Positions 552 to 13,784 of a stretch of 25,115 nt of DNA are shown here, one piece after another (the first letter of the stretch is position 1; each line of letters begins with the position of its first letter). Below the pieces are notes generated by a model. It did no database searches and was not told the origin of the DNA. It was given only the letters and a program-made list of their open reading frames with translations. Made by a program: the position numbers and the translations under genes. The DNA comes from a virus. The stretch spans positions 1 through 25,115 of the IMG/VR virus record IMGVR_UViG_3300035661_003225, one strand, 5' to 3'.

Positions 552-579
552 CTAATTAATTAAAAAAGTTAATAAACTT

Positions 580-601
580 TTAAGTAAAATTTTGATATAA
601 T
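580..601 (+). promoter_or_regulatory. Promoter for the first structured RNA
   Basis: TTAAG at 580-584 is followed by a TATAAT at 596-601 (TTGATATAAT), the spacing pattern seen at most other promoters in the window. The expected transcription start is near 608, about 15 bases before the 24-bp hairpin. No open reading frame follows, so the product is probably a non-coding RNA. Confidence 0.65.
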
Positions 602-623
602 ATTATATATAAAAAATAAGAAG

Positions 624-730
624 GGTTTGTTAATTGAGAGAAGTTTTTATTTAGATACGGTTATCAATATCGCAAGTATTCGATATTACAGTTCAACTCT
701 GTTTATAAAACTTCTTTCAATTAACAAACC
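624..730 (+). ncRNA. Long-hairpin RNA candidate 1 (24-bp closing stem)
   Basis: Bases 624-647 pair with 707-730 over 24 positions with a single G-U wobble, enclosing a 59-base interior. Inside, AATATCG (666-672) pairs with CGATATT (681-687), and ACAG/CTGT (688-691/699-702) closes a seven-base loop TTCAACT that resembles a tRNA T-arm. The motif GATACGG (654-660) also occurs in RNA candidate 2. No anticodon arm or CCA-compatible acceptor could be assembled, so I do not call it a tRNA. It lacks a U-tract after the stem, so it is not a simple terminator. Its own promoter lies just upstream. Function unknown; a processing substrate, decoy or guide are all possible. Confidence 0.6.
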
Positions 731-758
731 TTTCAAAATAATTATATAAAATGAAATA

Positions 759-925
759 CCTGCTCACTTGAAGGCAAAATAGCAGAGTGAGACTTGTTTC
801 GGGATTGCAACCGCTGGACAAGCGTGGAGATGGAAATTCTCTCAGATACAGTACGAAATTATAAGCTGTATCAAAATAGCTGGCACGTTTGAAGCTGAAC
901 GTGGATTTTATGCTGTTATAAATCC
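759..925 (+). ncRNA. Multi-hairpin structured RNA candidate
   Basis: About 165 bases visibly richer in G+C than the flanks contain six consecutive potential hairpins: 763-768/786-791, 793-797/818-822 (with inner 800-802/811-813), 826-830/838-842, 845-851/866-872, 884-889/898-903 and 904-908/920-924. An alternative pairing CTGCT (760-764) with AGCAG (781-785) competes with the first hairpin. There is no open reading frame of note. It has no obvious promoter of its own and is probably read from the promoter at 580-601. I looked for group I intron, RNase P, tmRNA and hammerhead cores and did not find them. GOLLD/ROOL-type phage RNAs are a possible comparison, but I cannot test this. Confidence 0.55.
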
Positions 926-975
926 TAACTATAAAATAACTACAAATAATTGATTGGTATTTTAGTTTAATTTGT

Positions 976-1030
976 TTATCTTAGTTTAAGGTTATTATGA
1001 TATAATTAATGTATCAAAAGAAAGAAGGAA
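976..1030 (+). repeat. Promoter-leader repeat, copy A
   Basis: This 55-base segment matches 1211-1265 at 54 of 55 positions (G at 991 versus T). It spans the promoter, the start of the transcript and an AAGAAGGAA ribosome-binding-type sequence. Copy A leads into RNA candidate 2, copy B into the RNA ligase gene, so the two units were probably generated by duplication and should be expressed together. Confidence 0.9.
986..1006 (+). promoter_or_regulatory. Promoter for structured RNA candidate 2
   Basis: TTAAG at 986-990 is followed ten bases later by TATAAT at 1001-1006, within TATGATATAAT. It lies in repeat copy A. Confidence 0.75.
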
Positions 1031-1200
1031 TGATGATTATCATTCCTTATGTGAAAACAAATATCATTAGATGATATACATTGATTTAAAGAAATTTAAA
1101 AATAAGTCCAACAGGGATGCTGGGGTATGGCGATTCTCAACCCAAACTTGATAAATGTTGATACGGATAACTGTTTATCATTAAATTTCTTTAAATCAAT
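1025..1200 (+). ncRNA. Long-hairpin RNA candidate 2 (20-bp closing stem)
   Basis: The transcript would begin near 1013. A perfect 10-bp hairpin with a GATT loop (1025-1034/1039-1048) comes first and covers the leader's ribosome-binding-type sequence. A 7-bp hairpin follows (1061-1067/1071-1077). Then 1080-1099 pairs perfectly with 1181-1200 over 20 bp around an 81-base interior. Inside, TGATAAA (1149-1155) pairs with TTTATCA (1174-1180), and its loop carries GATACGG (1160-1166), the heptamer shared with RNA candidate 1. A 14-codon ORF starting at 1030 is possible but overlaps the first hairpin and has poor spacing from the Shine-Dalgarno-like sequence. Function unknown. Confidence 0.6.
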
Positions 1201-1210
1201 TACGTATTGA

Positions 1211-1265
1211 TTATCTTAGTTTAAGTTTATTATGATATAATTAATGTATCAAAAGAAAGAAGGAA
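1211..1265 (+). repeat. Promoter-leader repeat, copy B
   Basis: Second copy of the segment at 976-1030, with one difference in 55 bases. Here the leader's AAGAAGGAA is used as the Shine-Dalgarno sequence of the RNA ligase gene. Confidence 0.9.
1221..1241 (+). promoter_or_regulatory. Promoter of the RNA ligase gene
   Basis: TTAAG at 1221-1225 and TATAAT at 1236-1241 with ten bases between, inside repeat copy B. The expected leader is about 25 bases. Confidence 0.8.
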
Positions 1266-1271
1266 AGTAAT

Positions 1272-2471
1272 ATGTTACCAACACTCGAACAATGCTTAGA
1301 AATATGTGCAAACAATATATCATTTAAATTTAAGCAAGAATTAATCGATGGAATGAAAGTCTATCAATTCACTTATTTTCTTGCAAAACACAACGATTTT
1401 ATCAATCCATTAAATCAACCTGAAAATGCAATTACTATTACTGCAGAGGAACTTCGTGGTTTGACATTTGTTGAACAATCTGATAGTACATATCGCCGTT
1501 TCTTTATGCTTCACAAATTCTTTAACATGGGACAAGTTCCCGGTTACCTTTATCATGAGGTTAAAGATCATAAGATATTAAAAGTTCAAGACAAACGTGA
1601 TGGTTCTATGATATCATTTGTTAATATTAATGATAATGTATATGCTAAATCAAAATACTCATTTCAATCTGAACAAGCAGTTGTTGCACAAAACATCTAC
1701 AATACAAATGAAGGACTTCGTGATTTTGTTGATTATTCATTAAATAACAATATTCAACCGATCTTTGAATTAACAAGTCCAATGAACCAAATTGTTTTAC
1801 GCTACAGCAAGACAGAATTAAAAATTATCCAACTTCGTGATGCTACAACAGGTATGTATGTAACGACTACAAAAGATTTCAGAGATATGGTTTTTGAAAT
1901 ATATGGTATTGAATTTGCTGATGAACTTCCCCTTGAGACATATACATTTGAAAAAATGATTGAATTACGTGAAACAATTACAGGTATTGAAGGATGGGTT
2001 GTTACTACAGAACGTGGTATGCTTAAAATCAAAACTGAAGAATATATACGTTTACATCATTTAATGACAGATTCTATCACAAAAGAAAATGAAGTTATTC
2101 GTATGACACTTGATGAAGAAATAGATGACGTTTTAGCAGAAATTCCTATAGATGCACTTGAATTACGTTTCTTCGTTGAAACAATATCAGATGGAATTAT
2201 TGATCATGTTAATGAATTTTCTGAAAAAATCAAGGAAATGTACATTGATATGAAAACCTTATATCCTGAAAGAAAAGATTTTGCAATTGCATGTAAACCA
2301 TCAGAATATTTTGGTTTATTGATGAGAGCGTATCATGATCCTTCAGATGAAGCGATTGAGAAAGAAGTAATCAATTATGTAAAATCGAAAACATCTAAGT
2401 TAGGTCTTGCAAAAGAATATCTGAAAGAATTGTGCATTGATGCACGATTTGAATCTAAAGACGAAGATTGA
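1272..2471 (+). CDS. rnlA: RNA ligase, T4 Rnl1 family
   Basis: Seals 5'-phosphate and 3'-OH RNA ends through a covalent lysyl-AMP intermediate. The 399-residue protein is close to the length of T4 Rnl1 (374). Visible nucleotidyltransferase motifs are motif I K108-R-D-G-S with the adenylated lysine, FELTSP near 165-170 (motif IIIa position), E240-G-W-V-V (motif IV) and K252-I-K254 (motif V). The C-terminal third is helical and charged, as expected for the Rnl1-specific domain that favours tRNA anticodon-loop breaks. The start has AAGGAA at a good distance and its own promoter. The likely partner is the HD-Pnk at 7076-8164, which would produce the ends this enzyme needs. The gene lies directly downstream of the structured RNAs and shares their promoter-leader. 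Family assignment is strong; the physiological substrate is inferred. Confidence 0.92.
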   Translation: MLPTLEQCLEICANNISFKFKQELIDGMKVYQFTYFLAKHNDFINPLNQPENAITITAEELRGLTFVEQSDSTYRRFFMLHKFFNMGQVPGYLYHEVKDHKILKVQDKRDGSMISFVNINDNVYAKSKYSFQSEQAVVAQNIYNTNEGLRDFVDYSLNNNIQPIFELTSPMNQIVLRYSKTELKIIQLRDATTGMYVTTTKDFRDMVFEIYGIEFADELPLETYTFEKMIELRETITGIEGWVVTTERGMLKIKTEEYIRLHHLMTDSITKENEVIRMTLDEEIDDVLAEIPIDALELRFFVETISDGIIDHVNEFSEKIKEMYIDMKTLYPERKDFAIACKPSEYFGLLMRAYHDPSDEAIEKEVINYVKSKTSKLGLAKEYLKELCIDARFESKDED

Positions 2472-4431: not shown

Positions 4432-5516
4432 CAAATATGAAAATCAAAGTAACACCTGAACAATCTGAATTTATTCAAAAATACTGGTTTTCTCAGGGAT
4501 ATGTATGGGAAGATAATTCTAAAACTGTTAAAAACGTTGATTCGTCGTACATATTAACTTCTTCAGGAAAAATAAAATTTTCTGATACATCTGTATCTTT
4601 TAATGATGATACAATAACAATACTTGCATCAACTTATATTGAGAAAATATTAATTGATACGATGAGGGGTAATGAAAAAACCTGGAAAACGGTAATATCA
4701 AATAAGGAAGAATCTAAGAAGATTCAAGATGCATTTATCCGTCTAGGTGCATCATGGGATGATGATGTAATAAGAATCAAACATATAAATGCATCATATT
4801 TATGTCTAAAGAATAATATATTTGATTATAATTATGATGAATTGTCATTTTTTCTTAATGAATCTGTTGGAATTCCTGCATATATTCTTATTGAATATGC
4901 AAGGCAAGCGATTGAGAAAATAGGAAAAAACAATTATATATCTGATAAAGTTATTGCATCAGCAAATGAATATATATACGATAATTCAATTACAAATTGT
5001 AACGCTACAACATCAGCAACTACAATACGTAACACATATATAACTGATAACCTATCTTCAACAAATGTACATATTAGGCCAATAACTACTTTCATTGGTT
5101 CAGAATATATAACAAAAAATAACATAACAAAAGGAATGAAAAACGTGGCAAAAGTAGCGGATATCGTATCAAGCACATTAGATGCAAATAAACAAGCAGT
5201 AACAACTGTTGTAGAAATTACAATCGGTAAAGCAACAATCAAATCAGCAAGGAAGTTGATTAAACCTAAACTACCTATGTTCTTAAAAGGATATGCAGAT
5301 TCACCAATCTTTGATGTAATAATCGCTAACATGTTACAGATAGCAGTTGAAACACGTTTTAAAGATAATGAGAAATTACGCAAATTGTCAAAAGCAACTA
5401 TGAATGCAGCAGCACTAACTATTGCAGAACATTTTGATATTGATGGAATGATTGATGATTTTATCAATTCTATTACATTTCCAAAAGGTGTTAAACTTGA
5501 GGATATTGAGGATTAA
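4428..5516 (+). CDS. Unknown phage protein with duplicated C-terminal module
   Basis: A 362-residue protein. The N-terminal half holds two diverged copies of a small motif: a helix ending in GYVWED or GASWDDD, then a strand with SSYILT or ASYLCL (about residues 12-65 and 95-150), which I recall from small phage proteins of unknown role. Residues 237-362 are the module shared with the protein at 2497-3549. The N-terminal halves of the two proteins are unrelated, so this is a domain shuffle. AAGGA at 5131-5135 sits next to an ATG (5136) and nine bases before a GTG (5145), leaving room for separate translation of the module. The gene begins with an ATGA overlap on the transpeptidase gene. Confidence 0.85.
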   Translation: MTNMKIKVTPEQSEFIQKYWFSQGYVWEDNSKTVKNVDSSYILTSSGKIKFSDTSVSFNDDTITILASTYIEKILIDTMRGNEKTWKTVISNKEESKKIQDAFIRLGASWDDDVIRIKHINASYLCLKNNIFDYNYDELSFFLNESVGIPAYILIEYARQAIEKIGKNNYISDKVIASANEYIYDNSITNCNATTSATTIRNTYITDNLSSTNVHIRPITTFIGSEYITKNNITKGMKNVAKVADIVSSTLDANKQAVTTVVEITIGKATIKSARKLIKPKLPMFLKGYADSPIFDVIIANMLQIAVETRFKDNEKLRKLSKATMNAAALTIAEHFDIDGMIDDFINSITFPKGVKLEDIED

Positions 5517-5526
5517 TTTCCTCAAT
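5505..5526 (+). terminator. Hairpin over the stop codon of the preceding gene
   Basis: ATTGAGGA (5505-5512) pairs perfectly with TCCTCAAT (5519-5526) around a six-base loop. No run of T follows, so it may be a weak terminator or an mRNA end stabiliser rather than a classical terminator. A promoter follows within 50 bases. Confidence 0.35.
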
Positions 5527-5547
5527 AAACATAATTAGAGTATATTT

Positions 5548-5580
5548 TTAAGTATATTTTAATTATTTTTATGATATAAT
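5548..5580 (+). promoter_or_regulatory. Promoter of the 94-residue protein gene
   Basis: TATGATATAAT ends at 5580. The TTAAG element is further away (5548-5552) than usual, with AT-rich sequence between. The leader of about 80 bases includes a 6-bp hairpin with a TAAG loop (5632-5647) just before the ribosome-binding site. Confidence 0.55.
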
Positions 5581-5666
5581 TATAATAAGTTAGAAAGTTA
5601 AATGGTTCTGAGATTAATCAGTTCAATTAGAATGTATTAAGATACATAACAATAAAGGAATGACAG

Positions 5667-7075: not shown

Positions 7076-8164
7076 ATGAAATTTACCGATATATATAGAT
7101 TAATAGAATGGTTTCAAAAGGAATATCCTAATCATGTAGAAGCTATGAGAGAATCTTCACATCATTACTCAGACAAAAGAATAAATCAATTTCATGGAGA
7201 GGGGGATATTTGGACACATACTTGTATGGTAGTAGGTGTTTCTAATCTTATGAAATATCCTGATGTAGTAGTTGCATCAGCATTACTTCATGACCTTGGT
7301 AAACCTTATGTACGTGAAATAAATGATGAGAAACAAAAGGTTTATTTCAGGAATCATGAAGGTGTTTCATTCTGGAAAGCAATAGGTGTTGTAAAACAAT
7401 TAACTGATAACGTTGAAAAACAAAAAACAATTCTTAAATTAATTGCACTTCACAGTTCAATTTTTGATAATTATAGTGATGGGGAATTTTCAAGAGATTT
7501 TCTCAAAAAATTCAGGAATGATAAAGACTTCCTTGAATTATTGAAAATGCAAGTTATATCTGATTCAATGGGTAGATTCTGTTATGATTTAGAAGATGTT
7601 CGTGAAAAATTTGATCGAATATTTGATGATAATTTCTATACAGAATTAGAAGAAACATCTAATACACCTACTGTTAAGAAACACGATAGCACCCTTACAA
7701 TTCTTATTGGACTTCCACGTTCAGGTAAATCTACATGGATTGCTAATAATGTTGTTGATGAAGTTGTAATCTCACGTGATGATACACTTGTGAAATATGC
7801 AAAAGAACATTACGATGTGAAGACTTACTCAGAGGCGTTTAAAGCACTTAATGATAATGATCAACGAAAAGTTGATTCTATTATTGCTACATTATTTCAC
7901 AATTCTATTAGAGAAGGTAAAGATGTCATAATTGATATGACAAATATGTCTAAAAAATCTCGTCATAAATGGCTTGTACGTTTTGGTGGTATCAAAAAAG
8001 CAATAGTATTTGCAACAGACCTGGATGAAATTGCACGACGTAATGAACATGACCGTAAAACAATTGGAAAATTTATTCCTCAATATGTACTTGATAATAT
8101 GGCTAAAAGTTTTGTATATCCTCAATATGATGAATTCGATACAATTGAAGTAATTATTGCATAA
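7076..8164 (+). CDS. HD-Pnk: HD phosphoesterase and polynucleotide kinase fusion
   Basis: The 362-residue protein joins an N-terminal HD phosphohydrolase (H48, H72-D73 in LLHDLGKP, N93-H94-E95, D163) to a C-terminal P-loop kinase (G212LPRSGKST220, SRDD at 233-236, IIDMTNMSKKSR at 285-295). This is the order of bacterial HD-Pnk, whose HD domain removes 2',3'-cyclic or 3'-phosphates while the kinase phosphorylates 5'-OH ends. It is the reverse of T4 Pnkp and uses an unrelated phosphatase domain. It would heal broken RNA ends for the ligase at 1272-2471, for example tRNAs cut by host anticodon nucleases. AAAAAGGAAAG precedes the ATG. The match by motif and order is strong; substrate choice is inferred. 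Confidence 0.88.
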   Translation: MKFTDIYRLIEWFQKEYPNHVEAMRESSHHYSDKRINQFHGEGDIWTHTCMVVGVSNLMKYPDVVVASALLHDLGKPYVREINDEKQKVYFRNHEGVSFWKAIGVVKQLTDNVEKQKTILKLIALHSSIFDNYSDGEFSRDFLKKFRNDKDFLELLKMQVISDSMGRFCYDLEDVREKFDRIFDDNFYTELEETSNTPTVKKHDSTLTILIGLPRSGKSTWIANNVVDEVVISRDDTLVKYAKEHYDVKTYSEAFKALNDNDQRKVDSIIATLFHNSIREGKDVIIDMTNMSKKSRHKWLVRFGGIKKAIVFATDLDEIARRNEHDRKTIGKFIPQYVLDNMAKSFVYPQYDEFDTIEVIIA

Positions 8165-10282: not shown

Positions 10283-11041
10283 ATGCTACCATTGATGGAA
10301 ACATTTTATAGTATTCAAGGTGAAGGTCGTCGAGCAGGATATAATTCATTATTCATTCGCTTTGGAGGATGTAACTTCAAATGCGCTGGGTTTGGCGTAT
10401 CTTACACAACACCAGACGGTGAGAAAAAATTCGGCTGTGATTCGTTTTATTCTGTTGATCAAAAGTTCAAAAAAGAATGGGATATCAAAGATAATTATTT
10501 TGATATCGTGCTTGAAGGTAACAAATCTATTCCTGAAAAAGCAACTAGATATGATGTTGTAATCACGGGTGGTGAACCATTGATTTATTGGAATACTGCT
10601 GAATTTCAAAATCTTCTTGTTTATTACATTTCACGTGGACATAAAGTAACAATAGAAACTAATGCATCACTTGATATTGAATTCACAAAAGATTATCAAA
10701 AACAGATTCAATTCAGTATGAGTGTCAAACTTGAAAATTCAGGCGAAGCAAAACATAAACGTATTAATATTGATTCAATCACAAATATCCTTGAAAACAC
10801 AGAACAAAGTTATTTAAAATTTGTTGTTGCAAAGAAAAATTCAGATATTACAATGATAGAAATTCGTGAGATTCTTGATTCATTAGCATATTTTGCAGAT
10901 GTATATCTTATGCCATTAGGTGATACAAATGAGGTTCTTAACGAAAATCGTGTTGCAGTAGCAGAATTATGTATTAAACATAATTTTATGTATTCAGATA
11001 GAATGCATATTGCAATTTGGGGGAACAAGCCTGGTGTATAA
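10283..11041 (+). CDS. queE: QueE-like 7-carboxy-7-deazaguanine synthase (radical SAM)
   Basis: Converts 6-carboxytetrahydropterin to 7-carboxy-7-deazaguanine with S-adenosylmethionine and a 4Fe-4S cluster. The 252-residue protein opens with METFYSIQGEGRRAG, the QueE signature, and has ITGGEPL and IETNAS downstream for SAM and substrate binding. The cluster-binding cysteines are C30, C34 and C52 (C-x3-C-x17-C), not the classical CxxxCxxC: the usual third position is F37. Variant spacing of this kind exists among QueE enzymes. It shares an operon with the DpdA-like gene and carries AAAGGA before its ATG. Product feeds preQ0 synthesis, here probably for DNA rather than tRNA modification. Confidence 0.88.
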   Translation: MLPLMETFYSIQGEGRRAGYNSLFIRFGGCNFKCAGFGVSYTTPDGEKKFGCDSFYSVDQKFKKEWDIKDNYFDIVLEGNKSIPEKATRYDVVITGGEPLIYWNTAEFQNLLVYYISRGHKVTIETNASLDIEFTKDYQKQIQFSMSVKLENSGEAKHKRINIDSITNILENTEQSYLKFVVAKKNSDITMIEIREILDSLAYFADVYLMPLGDTNEVLNENRVAVAELCIKHNFMYSDRMHIAIWGNKPGV

Positions 11042-12491
11042 TGATAAAAAACAAAAACTGAAAAAACCAAAAAAGCCTGTTGATATTGAATATTGTGCCA
11101 GTGGATTCCTCGGATTCTCGGGTGCAGAATCAATGATTAAACACGGAACAAATAATAACAAGATGGAATACATCGATTATATTGTTGATTCAGTTAATTA
11201 TTTAAAAGGTATGTTTGATAAAGTCGGAATCGATATGTCGGTCATGTACAATGCACAATATGAGCAGAAGAATGGTTACATGATGGAATTGTTGAAACAA
11301 CGTGGTATGACCTTAGAAGTACATTCCGATTCAGGTGGATTACAGATTTTTAGTCGTGGTTTAGATCTGGAAGCAGAAAAACCAAATATCTTCAAATCAC
11401 AAGGCACATATTCAGATTTAGCAATGTCATTTGACTTGATGCCTATGGTGACCGTTGGTGATAGGGCAGTGGGTAAATCGATTACGTTTCATAAGGCAAA
11501 ATCAAACAATTATTTTGTAAAGGAACTTGCATATATTCGTGGCAAAGAATCTGCAAAAAATGTTATTGATCAGATTGAAGAATTTATTAAACAAGGTACA
11601 CATACCAAGATTATGTTGATTCTTCAAGGCCATCATATTGAAGATTATGATGAATACGCACGTGGGTTATATGAGATTATTCCTGAAAAGTATTATGATA
11701 GAATTCATGGTATTGCTTTAGGTGCAACCGCATATCAGCGTTTTGATGATTTAATGGACGTGTATCTACGATTACAACGTGACTTAAAACATGTACCAAA
11801 ACAACACCTTAAACAGGTGCATCTATTGGGTACAGGTACGATTGAAAGAACATTCTCATTCATGATTCTTGCAAATAAAGATTATTATGATTTCCCTTTC
11901 AAGTTCAGTTTTGATGCAAGCACACATACCTCATCTTCAACCTGGGGTAAATGGACTGAGTTACGTGATGATGGTAAGGTTACTGCGATTCACCTAGGTG
12001 GGTACAAGATGACACGTCATGCACATATGCACTTTGCTAACATGTGGGAAGAAGTGGGTCCTATAATGACAAAACATTTTCCTGAATGTAAAACGGTTGA
12101 AGATCTAATCGAATTATTTTCACCTTTCAATTCGGAAGGAAAACGATTGTCAGCAGATTTCGAAGATAAAGAAGAATATGTCAGACGAACAAATATGTAC
12201 TCATATAATTGTTTCATTCTTGAAAGTGCAACGTTCTTGAGAATCGCTAACGATATTATCAATAACAGAAATTATCTGTCTAAATCGTCAAACAAGTATA
12301 GAAAAACTGCAAGTTCAATGATTGATAACCTAAAAAATTATGATGATTATATTGCACACGAGAAAGAGTACAGAAAAATCTTTGCACATTTACGTCCTCG
12401 TAAAATCAATTATGTTAATACATTAGCAGAAATTGATGAGCTTCAACACAACAAAGAAAACAATGTCCATGACTGGAACGACTGGGAATAA
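11034..12491 (+). CDS. dpdA: DpdA-like 7-deazaguanine DNA transglycosylase (TGT superfamily)
   Basis: Exchanges guanine in DNA for a 7-deazaguanine base. The 485-residue protein has the TGT-superfamily signature H-S-D99-S-G-G-L-Q, MLILQGHH near 194-201, IHGIALG near 224-230, and SFD294AST, a candidate for the catalytic aspartate. The canonical tRNA-guanine transglycosylase zinc motif is absent, which fits the DpdA branch rather than bacterial Tgt. Start chosen as GTG 11034, nine bases after GGGGGA and overlapping the end of queE by eight bases; a TTG at 11010 is also in frame. Coupling with queE and proximity to folE support DNA modification. Family call is fairly strong; base produced and extent of replacement are unknown. 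Confidence 0.85.
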   Translation: MYNDKKQKLKKPKKPVDIEYCASGFLGFSGAESMIKHGTNNNKMEYIDYIVDSVNYLKGMFDKVGIDMSVMYNAQYEQKNGYMMELLKQRGMTLEVHSDSGGLQIFSRGLDLEAEKPNIFKSQGTYSDLAMSFDLMPMVTVGDRAVGKSITFHKAKSNNYFVKELAYIRGKESAKNVIDQIEEFIKQGTHTKIMLILQGHHIEDYDEYARGLYEIIPEKYYDRIHGIALGATAYQRFDDLMDVYLRLQRDLKHVPKQHLKQVHLLGTGTIERTFSFMILANKDYYDFPFKFSFDASTHTSSSTWGKWTELRDDGKVTAIHLGGYKMTRHAHMHFANMWEEVGPIMTKHFPECKTVEDLIELFSPFNSEGKRLSADFEDKEEYVRRTNMYSYNCFILESATFLRIANDIINNRNYLSKSSNKYRKTASSMIDNLKNYDDYIAHEKEYRKIFAHLRPRKINYVNTLAEIDELQHNKENNVHDWNDWE

Positions 12492-12505
12492 TTTCTCAGC
12501 TGTTC

Positions 12506-12527
12506 TTAAGTTTAATTATGATATAAT
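12506..12527 (+). promoter_or_regulatory. Promoter of the folE operon
   Basis: TTAAG (12506-12510) and TATAAT (12522-12527), eleven bases apart. The dyad at 12526-12548 begins at the end of the -10. Confidence 0.78.
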
Positions 12528-12548
12528 AATGATAACAAAAATCATTAT
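12526..12548. promoter_or_regulatory. Dyad at the folE transcription start
   Basis: ATAATGAT (12526-12533) is the reverse complement of ATCATTAT (12541-12548), with seven bases between. Its arms resemble Fur half-sites. It covers the expected transcription start, where it could be an operator or a 5'-end mRNA hairpin. Confidence 0.4.
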
Positions 12549-12562
12549 CAAAAAGGAAACTA

Positions 12563-13270
12563 TTGAAAACCGCACAAGATAAAATTAAGAAAGAAATAAA
12601 AAAACTACATAACAATATTGCTTTACGTGAGATTGTAGTTAGGGAGTTAGAAGATATTGAACCTTTTGCACCACATGGTAATCATGTATTAAATGATTTG
12701 CAACGAGCAGTTATTACTGAGGAAGTTGCTAAAAAATTCGAGGATATTCTTGATATTTTAAAGATTGATAGGGAAGATCCAAATGTTATAGATACTCCAA
12801 TGCGTATTGCAAGCATGTATGTAAATGAATGGATGGTAGGTCGTTATGCAGAACATCCCAGAATGGAATCATTTCCAAATAGTATTGTAGGTGGTCAGTT
12901 TGTTGTTAAAAAATGTAAGGTACAATCATTATGTTCACATCATTTTGCACCATTTTTCACAGAAGGAAACTCACAAGATAGTTATTGTATGGTAGTTTAT
13001 CGTCCTACTACAAATCTTATGGGTATCAGTAAAATCAGTCGTTTAGTTGATTATTATGCACGTAGACCACAACTACAAGAAAATCTTTGTGCAATGGTTC
13101 GTAATGATCTTGTAAAAACATTAGGTTCAGAAGATGTTATGGTGTATATGAAAAATTTAATCCATACATGTGAAAGCACACGTGGTTCAGATGATGTTGA
13201 GGCAACAACAACCTCATTAGTATTTGGAGGAGTATTTGATGATGTCACAATCAGAAGTCAGTTTATCTGA
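12563..13270 (+). CDS. folE: GTP cyclohydrolase I
   Basis: Converts GTP to 7,8-dihydroneopterin triphosphate, the first step of both folate and 7-deazaguanine synthesis. The 235-residue protein has the zinc ligands C124, H127 and C203 in SLCSHHFAPF and HTCESTRG, plus the active-site segment GISKISRLVDYYARRPQLQE, and ATTTS near the end. The N-terminal 50 residues are a helical extension as in other members. The TTG start is preceded by AAAAGGAAAC at good spacing; no better ATG exists before the domain. It has its own promoter beside the queE-dpdA operon. It is followed by an overlapping phosphoribosyltransferase gene. Confidence 0.93.
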   Translation: MKTAQDKIKKEIKKLHNNIALREIVVRELEDIEPFAPHGNHVLNDLQRAVITEEVAKKFEDILDILKIDREDPNVIDTPMRIASMYVNEWMVGRYAEHPRMESFPNSIVGGQFVVKKCKVQSLCSHHFAPFFTEGNSQDSYCMVVYRPTTNLMGISKISRLVDYYARRPQLQENLCAMVRNDLVKTLGSEDVMVYMKNLIHTCESTRGSDDVEATTTSLVFGGVFDDVTIRSQFI

Positions 13271-13784
13271 AGCAATTGATAAACTTGATGCAGCTGCAAA
13301 ATTAAATATGGAATGGAGTAATTATGATAAATGTATCAGATACTTAAATCACATAATCAATGAAAAAACAAGAGATGGTGGAAGAGGTTCGATTGTTGGT
13401 ATTCATCGTGGAAGTTTAGGTATGGCAGCACATTTAAGTAATCTCTCAGGATTACCTATGAGTATTATCAAGTTTCAAACATATAACGGTAATGATAAAG
13501 AGCCTATATTGATATGGACAGAAATCAATAATGGTGATATTATCTTCTTATGTGACGATATAATCGACACAGGAAATACCATGAAAAAATGCATTGAATT
13601 TTTTAAAGTAAAATATCCAAAATCTGAAGTGTATCCAATGGCGTTGATGGGTTCAGATAAAAAATATACATATTGTTATGAACATAATAATGAATGGGTA
13701 ATTTTCCCATGGGAAAAACTCTCTGCTTTTTCAAGTGATTCCAAAGAATGGGAAGAAAGACAATCATCACATGGACAATACTGA
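13239..13784 (+). CDS. Phosphoribosyltransferase (type I)
   Basis: A 181-residue purine-type PRTase. The PRPP-binding signature is IIFLCDDIIDTGNTMKK (about residues 103-119); GIHRGSLGMAAHLS earlier matches the PPi-binding loop region. The fold resembles xanthine-guanine or hypoxanthine enzymes. GGAGG at 13226-13230 selects the ATG at 13239; the gene overlaps folE by 32 bases and the next gene by 14. A phage could use it for purine salvage. Because it sits in the 7-deazaguanine locus, it might instead attach a deazaguanine base to ribose phosphate; that is speculation from context. Confidence 0.85.
   Translation: MMSQSEVSLSEAIDKLDAAAKLNMEWSNYDKCIRYLNHIINEKTRDGGRGSIVGIHRGSLGMAAHLSNLSGLPMSIIKFQTYNGNDKEPILIWTEINNGDIIFLCDDIIDTGNTMKKCIEFFKVKYPKSEVYPMALMGSDKKYTYCYEHNNEWVIFPWEKLSAFSSDSKEWEERQSSHGQY

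What the first reader, a model, noticed from the sequence alone, without database searches (positions are those of the whole stretch)
580..1271. Cluster of structured RNAs beside an Rnl1-type RNA ligase
A 720-bp gene-free stretch in an otherwise packed phage genome holds three strongly structured segments and three promoters, the last of which drives an RNA ligase. The RNA ligase and the second long hairpin share a nearly identical promoter-leader. In the two long hairpins (24-bp and 20-bp closing stems) the 5' and 3' ends would sit next to each other in a duplex. That makes them possible substrates for cleavage and ligation, for instance into circular RNAs, or decoys for host nucleases. The link to the ligase is inferred from proximity and shared regulation only.
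Basis: partly seen in the sequence, partly recalled or inferred. Interest (0 to 1): 0.82.

Follow-up and report, generated by a model that had tools for sequence, protein, structure and literature searches.

The report
Phage cluster of long-stem noncoding RNAs
A phage that probably infects Campylobacter-like bacteria carries a 720-base gene-free stretch that appears to encode two or three unusually stable small RNAs closed by long double-stranded stems; known Campylobacter phages carry a similarly built, unannotated cluster, so this looks like an overlooked class of phage RNA, but nothing ties it to the RNA ligase gene next door.

Summary
Window 552-1271 is the only gene-free gap of 300 nt or more in 25 kb. 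It holds a 28-bp stem around a 59-nt core (seg1, z -8.7), a multibranched segment (seg2, z -2.5) and a 20-bp stem around an 81-nt core (seg3, z -3.7). Two phage-type promoters there face no ORF of useful length. No Rfam family fits and no sequence relative was found. The ligase link does not hold: the "shared" promoter-leader is a phage-wide promoter (7 near-identical copies), and the three closest ligase relatives (75-85% identity) keep the ligase and its HD-Pnk partner but lack the RNAs. The key comparison: Campylobacter Firehammerviruses carry a 683-nt gene-free cluster of the same make-up (30-bp stem, 21-bp stem, multibranched RNA), conserved in 10 distinct sequences with a few compensatory changes, 106 kb from the ligase in CP220. 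A Fletchervirus is known to express an abundant 158-nt ncRNA. Best reading: standalone phage ncRNAs closed by RNase III-sized helices, probably structural decoys or regulators; function is inferred, not shown. A 16-nt match of seg3 to the C. jejuni CRISPR repeat is recorded as a weak anti-CRISPR lead.

The parts
578..601 (+). Promoter 1, TTTTAAGT box and TGATATAAT; drives seg1 and probably seg2
   Evidence: Third, variant copy of the -10 element shared with promoters 2 and 3; same box as gene promoters of this phage with spacing +1
620..734 (+). Seg1: long-stem RNA, 28-bp closing helix (620-647/707-734) around a 59-nt core
   Evidence: z -8.66; longest stem found in 60 shuffles was 21 bp; both departures are G.U on this strand (+ -43.5, - -37.0 kcal/mol)
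654..702 (+). Core of seg1: three possible hairpins (654-665, 666-687, 688-702); the last is T-arm-like (ACAG-UUCAACU-CUGU)
   Evidence: Three-hairpin fold -43.2 vs MFE -43.5; only such T-arm-like hairpin in the window
752..964 (+). Seg2: multibranched segment, 9-bp closing helix and about six hairpins
   Evidence: z -2.45, 3/200 shuffles; more stable on + than - strand
985..1008 (+). Promoter 2, copy of the phage-wide promoter, upstream of seg3
   Evidence: One mismatch to the 24-nt box
1025..1048 (+). Leader hairpin, 10 bp, which buries the ribosome-binding site copied with the promoter
   Evidence: Perfect inverted repeat; only a 14-codon ORF follows
1080..1200 (+). Seg3: long-stem RNA, 20-bp closing helix (1080-1099/1181-1200) around an 81-nt core with three hairpins
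   Evidence: z -3.67; inverted repeat 26 nt at 92%
1087..1102 (-). 16-nt exact match to the C. jejuni type II-C CRISPR repeat, inside the seg3 5' arm (lead only)
1220..1243 (+). Promoter 3, drives the RNA ligase gene
   Evidence: Exact copy of the 24-nt box
1272..2471 (+). Neighbour, not part of the RNA cluster: Rnl1-type RNA ligase, 399 aa
   Evidence: PF09511, 63.5 bits vs cut-off 28.3
7076..8164 (+). Neighbour: HD-Pnk-type end-healing protein, conserved partner of the ligase
   Evidence: HD and AAA_33 domains; kept near the ligase in L012, L014, Los1

Best explanation
The stretch is a noncoding RNA locus of a large phage, probably of a Campylobacterota host. Two phage promoters (593 and 998) transcribe two or three small RNAs that are not translated: seg1 (with seg2 behind it) and seg3. 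Seg1 and seg3 are each folded back by a long helix that brings their ends together around a compact multi-hairpin core. Shown: the helices and their statistical strength, the promoters, the absence of ORFs, and a similarly built, conserved cluster in Firehammerviruses. Inferred: transcription, and that the closing helix is a stability clamp and RNase III processing site. Most likely use, in my judgement: an abundant phage RNA that occupies a host RNA-binding or RNA-processing factor, as a decoy or regulator (this last step perhaps 0.25). Independence from the ligase is better supported than dependence on it.
For: Folding statistics. Phage-type promoters facing no ORF, all other copies close to gene starts. 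Masked ribosome-binding site in the seg3 leader. G.U rather than A.C departures on the transcribed strand of seg1. Analogous 683-nt cluster in Campylobacter phage CP220 with two long stems and a multibranched RNA, conserved in 15 phage records, stem arms invariant at 116/122 positions against 107/188 in the RNA1 and RNA2 cores, compensatory changes. Published RNA-seq: the most densely transcribed feature of Campylobacter phage NCTC 12673 is an unannotated 158-nt ncRNA (PMC6024767).
Against: No expression data for this phage or for the Firehammervirus cluster. No homologue of seg1-3 was found, so covariation could not be tested in the window's own RNAs. No sequence similarity to the Campylobacter phage RNAs, so the parallel is architectural only. 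Seg2 is only modestly structured. Covariation events in Firehammervirus are few.
Confidence: 0.6

Rival explanations
1. One reading: the two long-stem RNAs are cleaved and their adjacent ends joined by the neighbouring Rnl1-type ligase, giving circular RNAs.
For: Proximity; complete end-healing and sealing pair in the phage; ends of both stems would be juxtaposed.
Against: Ligase relatives keep ligase and HD-Pnk but not the RNAs; in CP220 the analogous RNAs lie 106 kb from the ligase; the promoter is phage-wide; Rnl1 enzymes prefer single-stranded ends (own knowledge).
Confidence: 0.07
2. DNA elements rather than RNAs: the inverted repeats are miniature mobile elements, protein-binding sites or a replication or recombination site.
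For: Campylobacter phages carry IS200/IS605 remnants, one inserted in the loop of Firehammervirus RNA1; seg1's inverted repeat extends to 46 nt at 83%; seg3 folds almost equally well on both strands.
Against: Single copies, no matching copies in relatives; departures in the seg1 stem are G.U on the transcribed strand and seg2 is more stable on +; no similarity of seg1-3 to the IS605-type end; promoters read into the elements.
Confidence: 0.12
3. tRNA mimic: seg1 is a cloverleaf-like RNA with a 28-bp acceptor-like helix and T-arm and D-arm look-alikes that decoys tRNA-acting enzymes such as anticodon nucleases.
For: Three-hairpin fold nearly isoenergetic with the MFE; the T-arm-like hairpin is the only one on either strand of the window, background about 5 per 100 kb per strand.
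Against: ARAGORN and the Rfam tRNA model reject it; 8-nt 'anticodon' loop; 4 unpaired nt between T-arm and closing stem; seg3 shows no such motif; noticed after the fact.
Confidence: 0.08
4. RNA anti-CRISPR: seg3 imitates the repeat/anti-repeat duplex of type II-C CRISPR and titrates Cas9 or its RNAs.
For: Exact 16-nt match to the C. jejuni repeat in the 5' arm and 13 nt in the 3' arm; alignment score p about 0.003 in shuffles; RNA anti-CRISPRs of phages that mimic repeats are known (PMC10651486).
Against: Match covers 16 of 36 nt, in the AT-rich middle; the GTTTTAGTCCC half, recognised by Cas9 as far as I know, is absent; 14-nt matches occur in coding DNA of a relative; seg1, seg2 and the CP220 RNAs show no convincing match; host unknown; found post hoc.
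Confidence: 0.05
5. Leader or attenuator structures of the ligase transcript: read-through RNA regulates ligase expression.
For: Same strand, directly upstream; no terminator identified between seg3 and the ligase (one search lists none at the end of seg3).
Against: The ligase has its own full promoter after seg3; relatives express the ligase without these structures; seg1 and seg2 lie 300-650 nt upstream.
Confidence: 0.08

Closest known systems
Intergenic RNA cluster of Firehammervirus (CP220 56036-56718; CPt10, CP21, IBB_35, CC_R7 and others), largely unannotated, described here
   Same: Gene-free 0.7-kb stretch on the coding strand, promoter-led, two RNAs with 20-30-bp closing helices and one multibranched RNA
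   Different: No sequence similarity; next to the tail tube gene and near HD-Pnk, far from the ligase
158-nt ncRNA of Campylobacter phage NCTC 12673 (nt 7110-7267; PMC6024767)
   Same: Unannotated structured phage ncRNA, shown to be abundant
   Different: No 20-bp closing stem, single RNA, no sequence similarity
Ornate phage RNAs GOLLD and ROOL
   Same: Phage-borne structured noncoding RNA
   Different: No Rfam match at any threshold used; the segments are far shorter
RNA anti-CRISPRs / solitary repeat units (PMC10651486)
   Same: Small phage RNA from an intergenic promoter; partial repeat match in seg3
   Different: Only 16 of 36 repeat positions; long closing helix with a large core

Membership tests
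Known Rfam families incl. GOLLD, ROOL, tRNA, tmRNA | Covariance model score at or above the family's gathering threshold | tested here: not met
   0 matches at gathering; at E up to 10 only below-threshold chance matches; ARAGORN finds none
Firehammervirus long-stem RNA cluster | Sequence or covariance-model similarity | tested here: not met
   Alignments within shuffle range (best z about 2.0); RNA2 model finds nothing in the window
Firehammervirus long-stem RNA cluster | Architecture: two RNAs closed by helices of 20 bp or more plus one multibranched RNA in one gene-free stretch | tested here: met
RNA anti-CRISPR (type II-C repeat mimic) | Full-length similarity to a CRISPR repeat | tested here: not met
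   16 of 36 nt only
RNA anti-CRISPR (type II-C repeat mimic) | Matches the repeat of the actual host and inhibits its Cas9 | not testable with these tools
   Host unknown
tRNA / tRNA-like RNA | tRNA model or ARAGORN acceptance | tested here: not met
Circular RNA made by the phage ligase | Conserved linkage of RNA and ligase | tested here: not met
Circular RNA made by the phage ligase | RNase R-resistant RNA with junction reads | not testable with these tools
   Needs infected-cell RNA
Rnl1-type RNA ligase (neighbour gene) | Pfam RNA_lig_T4_1 above curated cut-off | tested here: met
   63.5 bits vs 28.3

The most novel reading that the evidence does not exclude
Seg3 is a permuted tracrRNA/crRNA mimic: the 5' arm imitates the anti-repeat, the 3' arm the repeat, and the core a tracr tail plus guide. 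It would jam type II-C Cas9, and if the neighbouring ligase joined the open ends of the duplex it would become a circular single-guide-like decoy.
Probability: 0.03. Interest if true: 0.9.

Novelty: new variant of a known kind. Interest (0 to 1): 0.5.

Why it matters
Structured phage RNAs outside tRNA clusters are mostly unannotated. If these clusters are real RNAs, they are a recurring component of Campylobacter-type phages that can be tested in existing isolates (CP220, CPt10, CP21) by simple Northern blots. They would add to the few known cases in which phages act on their hosts through abundant small RNAs.

Tried and rejected
(1) Rfam at gathering and permissive thresholds: nothing credible; the MIR529 hit is on the other strand and only reflects a long hairpin. 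(2) Sequence relatives: blastn in phages and plasmids, exact 18- to 20-mers in IMG/VR and GTDB; the two hits (L036, L041) are GC-rich coincidences. (3) Following the upstream protein (1-551): its relatives L037-L040 lack the RNAs. (4) Shared promoter as evidence of a ligase link: rejected, it is phage-wide. (5) IS200/IS605 origin of the window's RNAs, prompted by the IS remnant in Firehammervirus RNA1: no similarity. (6) Long stems elsewhere: G001 40739 lies in an ORF and G004 97613 in repeated sequence; Los1 has none of 20 bp. (7) CP220's 2.3-kb gap of high structure is an array of inverted repeats, not RNA genes. (8) G003 64145-64267 has the same layout (22-bp stem, three hairpins), but its 5' arm overlaps a terminator-like hairpin and no promoter precedes it, so it is only a tentative parallel. 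(9) The 12-nt motif GATACGGWTAWC shared by seg1 and seg3 exceeds chance, but no common fold or meaning was found. (10) Host promoter signature: the 23-nt promoter has no exact match in GTDB genomes, so it did not identify the host.

Full report
WHAT IS THERE. The window is a 25,115-base IMG/VR fragment of an AT-rich, T4-like phage. It carries an Rnl1-type RNA ligase (1272-2471, PF09511) and an HD-Pnk-type end-healing protein (7076-8164, HD plus P-loop kinase domains). In the phage collection the HD-Pnk protein is found mostly in Campylobacter phages (53 of 70 records), and the best matches of its DnaB-type helicase include many Campylobacter phages. The host is therefore most likely a member of the Campylobacterota (inferred).

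The stretch 552-1271 is the only gap of 300 nt or more without an ORF of 60 aa. Seg1 (620-734) is closed by 28 bp (26 Watson-Crick, two G.U) and folds 8.7 standard deviations below shuffles. In a scan of 833 overlapping windows its position is the most structured of the contig. Seg3 (1080-1200) is closed by 20 bp, z -3.7. Seg2 (752-964) is multibranched with a weaker z of -2.5. In 60 dinucleotide shuffles of the window only three stems of 20 bp or more arose in all, the longest 21.

TRANSCRIPTION. The -10 element TGATATAAT occurs at 593, 998 and 1233. The 24-nt promoter box found at 985 and 1220 recurs five more times in the window with at most two mismatches, against none expected, each time shortly before a gene. 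It also matches sites in front of genes in Campylobacter phages and in T4-like coliphages. The identity between the seg3 leader and the ligase leader is therefore a property of this phage's promoters, not evidence of co-regulation with the ligase. Behind promoter 2 the ribosome-binding site that came with the promoter copy is buried in a perfect 10-bp hairpin (1025-1048) and only a 14-codon ORF follows. That fits an untranslated RNA.

THE LIGASE LINK. Ligase relatives of 85% (L012) and 75% (L013, L014) identity have small ORFs and an rIIA-like gene, or the rIIA-like gene alone, directly upstream of the ligase (the gene name is from own knowledge), and no match to seg1-3 elsewhere in their records (the records are partial). 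What stays near the ligase is the HD-Pnk gene, in these phages and in Campylobacter phage Los1. The ligase is thus best read as part of an ordinary RNA end-healing and sealing pair.

THE COMPARISON THAT MATTERS. A scan for long stems with 30-130-nt loops found two adjacent, non-repetitive elements in Campylobacter phage CP220, at 56129-56301 and 56327-56433. They lie in a 683-nt gene-free, promoter-led stretch (56036-56718) between a thymidylate kinase gene and a tail tube gene, 1.5 kb downstream of CP220's HD-Pnk gene. A third, multibranched RNA follows. The make-up is that of the window: two long-stem RNAs and one multibranched RNA. A T4-like coliphage used as control has a single 19-bp stem in 168 kb.

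The Firehammervirus cluster is present in 15 Campylobacter phage records at 84-100% identity, mostly without annotation. Among 10 sequences the closing-stem arms are invariant at 116 of 122 positions, whereas the cores of RNA1 and RNA2 are invariant at 107 of 188. Changes that occur mostly keep the pairing: A-U to G-C in the RNA1 closing stem, A-U to G-C in the RNA2 core, and two adjacent double changes in the UGUGG/CCACA helix of RNA3 in IBB_35 (2 of 500 shuffles reach this, but that helix was chosen after seeing the alignment). The RNA1 covariation by itself does not beat its control. With so few events this is supportive, not conclusive. In three phages an IS200/IS605-type remnant sits inside the RNA1 loop while the closing stem is intact. 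Rfam has no family for the cluster, and an open-access literature search did not turn up a description of it. In CP220 the ligase homologue lies 106 kb away.

For Fletcherviruses, published RNA-seq reports that the most densely transcribed feature of NCTC 12673 is an unannotated 158-nt noncoding RNA (PMC6024767). It is structured (z -3.5 on the minus strand) but has no 20-bp closing stem. So an abundant structured RNA has been observed in a Campylobacter phage, although not yet for the clusters described here.

IS IT THE SAME FAMILY? Not by homology: no alignment between the window's RNAs and the Firehammervirus or NCTC 12673 RNAs exceeds shuffles convincingly, and a covariance model of Firehammervirus RNA2 finds nothing in the window or the IMG/VR relatives. 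The resemblance is one of architecture and setting. It could be common descent with fast divergence, or convergence.

MECHANISM. The steps that can be read from the sequence are promoters, no translation, and a folded RNA with adjacent ends closed by a helix long enough for RNase III. Beyond that is inference. The strong conservation of both arms in Firehammerviruses, with variable or even interrupted cores, argues that the closing helix is the functional constant. A clamp or processing helix on an abundant RNA that occupies a host RNA-binding or RNA-processing factor is the reading I prefer, at modest confidence. A report that RNase III is upregulated in C. jejuni phage carrier-state cultures (PMC4804229) makes RNase III one candidate target.

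A LEAD RECORDED, NOT CLAIMED. The seg3 5' arm contains TAAAGAAATTTAAAAA, an exact 16-nt match to the complement of the C. jejuni type II-C CRISPR repeat; the 3' arm matches the repeat over 13 nt. Shuffles give p about 0.003. Against it, the match lies in the AT-rich middle of the repeat, the GTTTTAGTCCC half is missing, 14-nt matches occur in coding DNA of a relative, and the comparison was made after noticing the string. Likewise, a T-arm-like hairpin in the seg1 core is unique in the window and a three-hairpin fold is nearly isoenergetic with the MFE, but no tRNA model accepts it. Both are kept as rivals.

VERDICT. A well-supported cluster of structured, probably noncoding RNAs, with an analogous conserved cluster in known Campylobacter phages that appears not to have been described. 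The ligase interpretation is not supported. Function remains open and is easy to test in isolates.

Noticed in passing
L083:3037-3719 (CP220 56036-56718) and homologues in L084-L092: Conserved, largely unannotated noncoding cluster with three structured RNAs in Firehammervirus phages; in CC_R7 several tandem copies of an AT-rich, promoter-like repeat precede it.
   Followed up: yes
L091:445-630, and the RNA1 loops in L090 and L092: Remnants matching the end of IS200/IS605 (ISCaje) TnpB elements are inserted in the loop of Firehammervirus RNA1; CC_R7 has 14 places matching this sequence.
   Followed up: partly
window 1272-2471 and 7076-8164: Rnl1-type ligase plus HD-Pnk-type end-healing protein: an RNA-repair pair also found near each other in Campylobacter phage Los1 and in the IMG/VR relatives.
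   Followed up: partly
window 10283-13784: Genes that look like QueE, a TGT/DpdA-like protein, FolE and a phosphoribosyltransferase, possibly for 7-deazaguanine DNA modification (from reading the translations; CP220 has an annotated QueE-like gene).
   Followed up: no
L050:4145-4267 (G003 64145-64267): 22-bp stem around a 79-nt, three-hairpin core in a related phage, more stable on the + strand (-35.9 vs -23.7 kcal/mol), directly after a terminator-like hairpin.
   Followed up: partly
window 5461-5590 and 12391-12610: Further strongly folding stretches around gene ends and promoters, z -5.1 and -4.4.
   Followed up: no
L001 1501-1555 (Shigella phage SF2-1): The window's promoter-leader matches a site just before a T4-like coliphage gene at 84% over 55 nt, a surprisingly close match between distant phages.
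   Followed up: no
window 654-665 and 1160-1171: Motif GATACGGWTAWC occurs in the cores of both seg1 and seg3 and not elsewhere in the window; no shuffle of 100 had two.
   Followed up: partly
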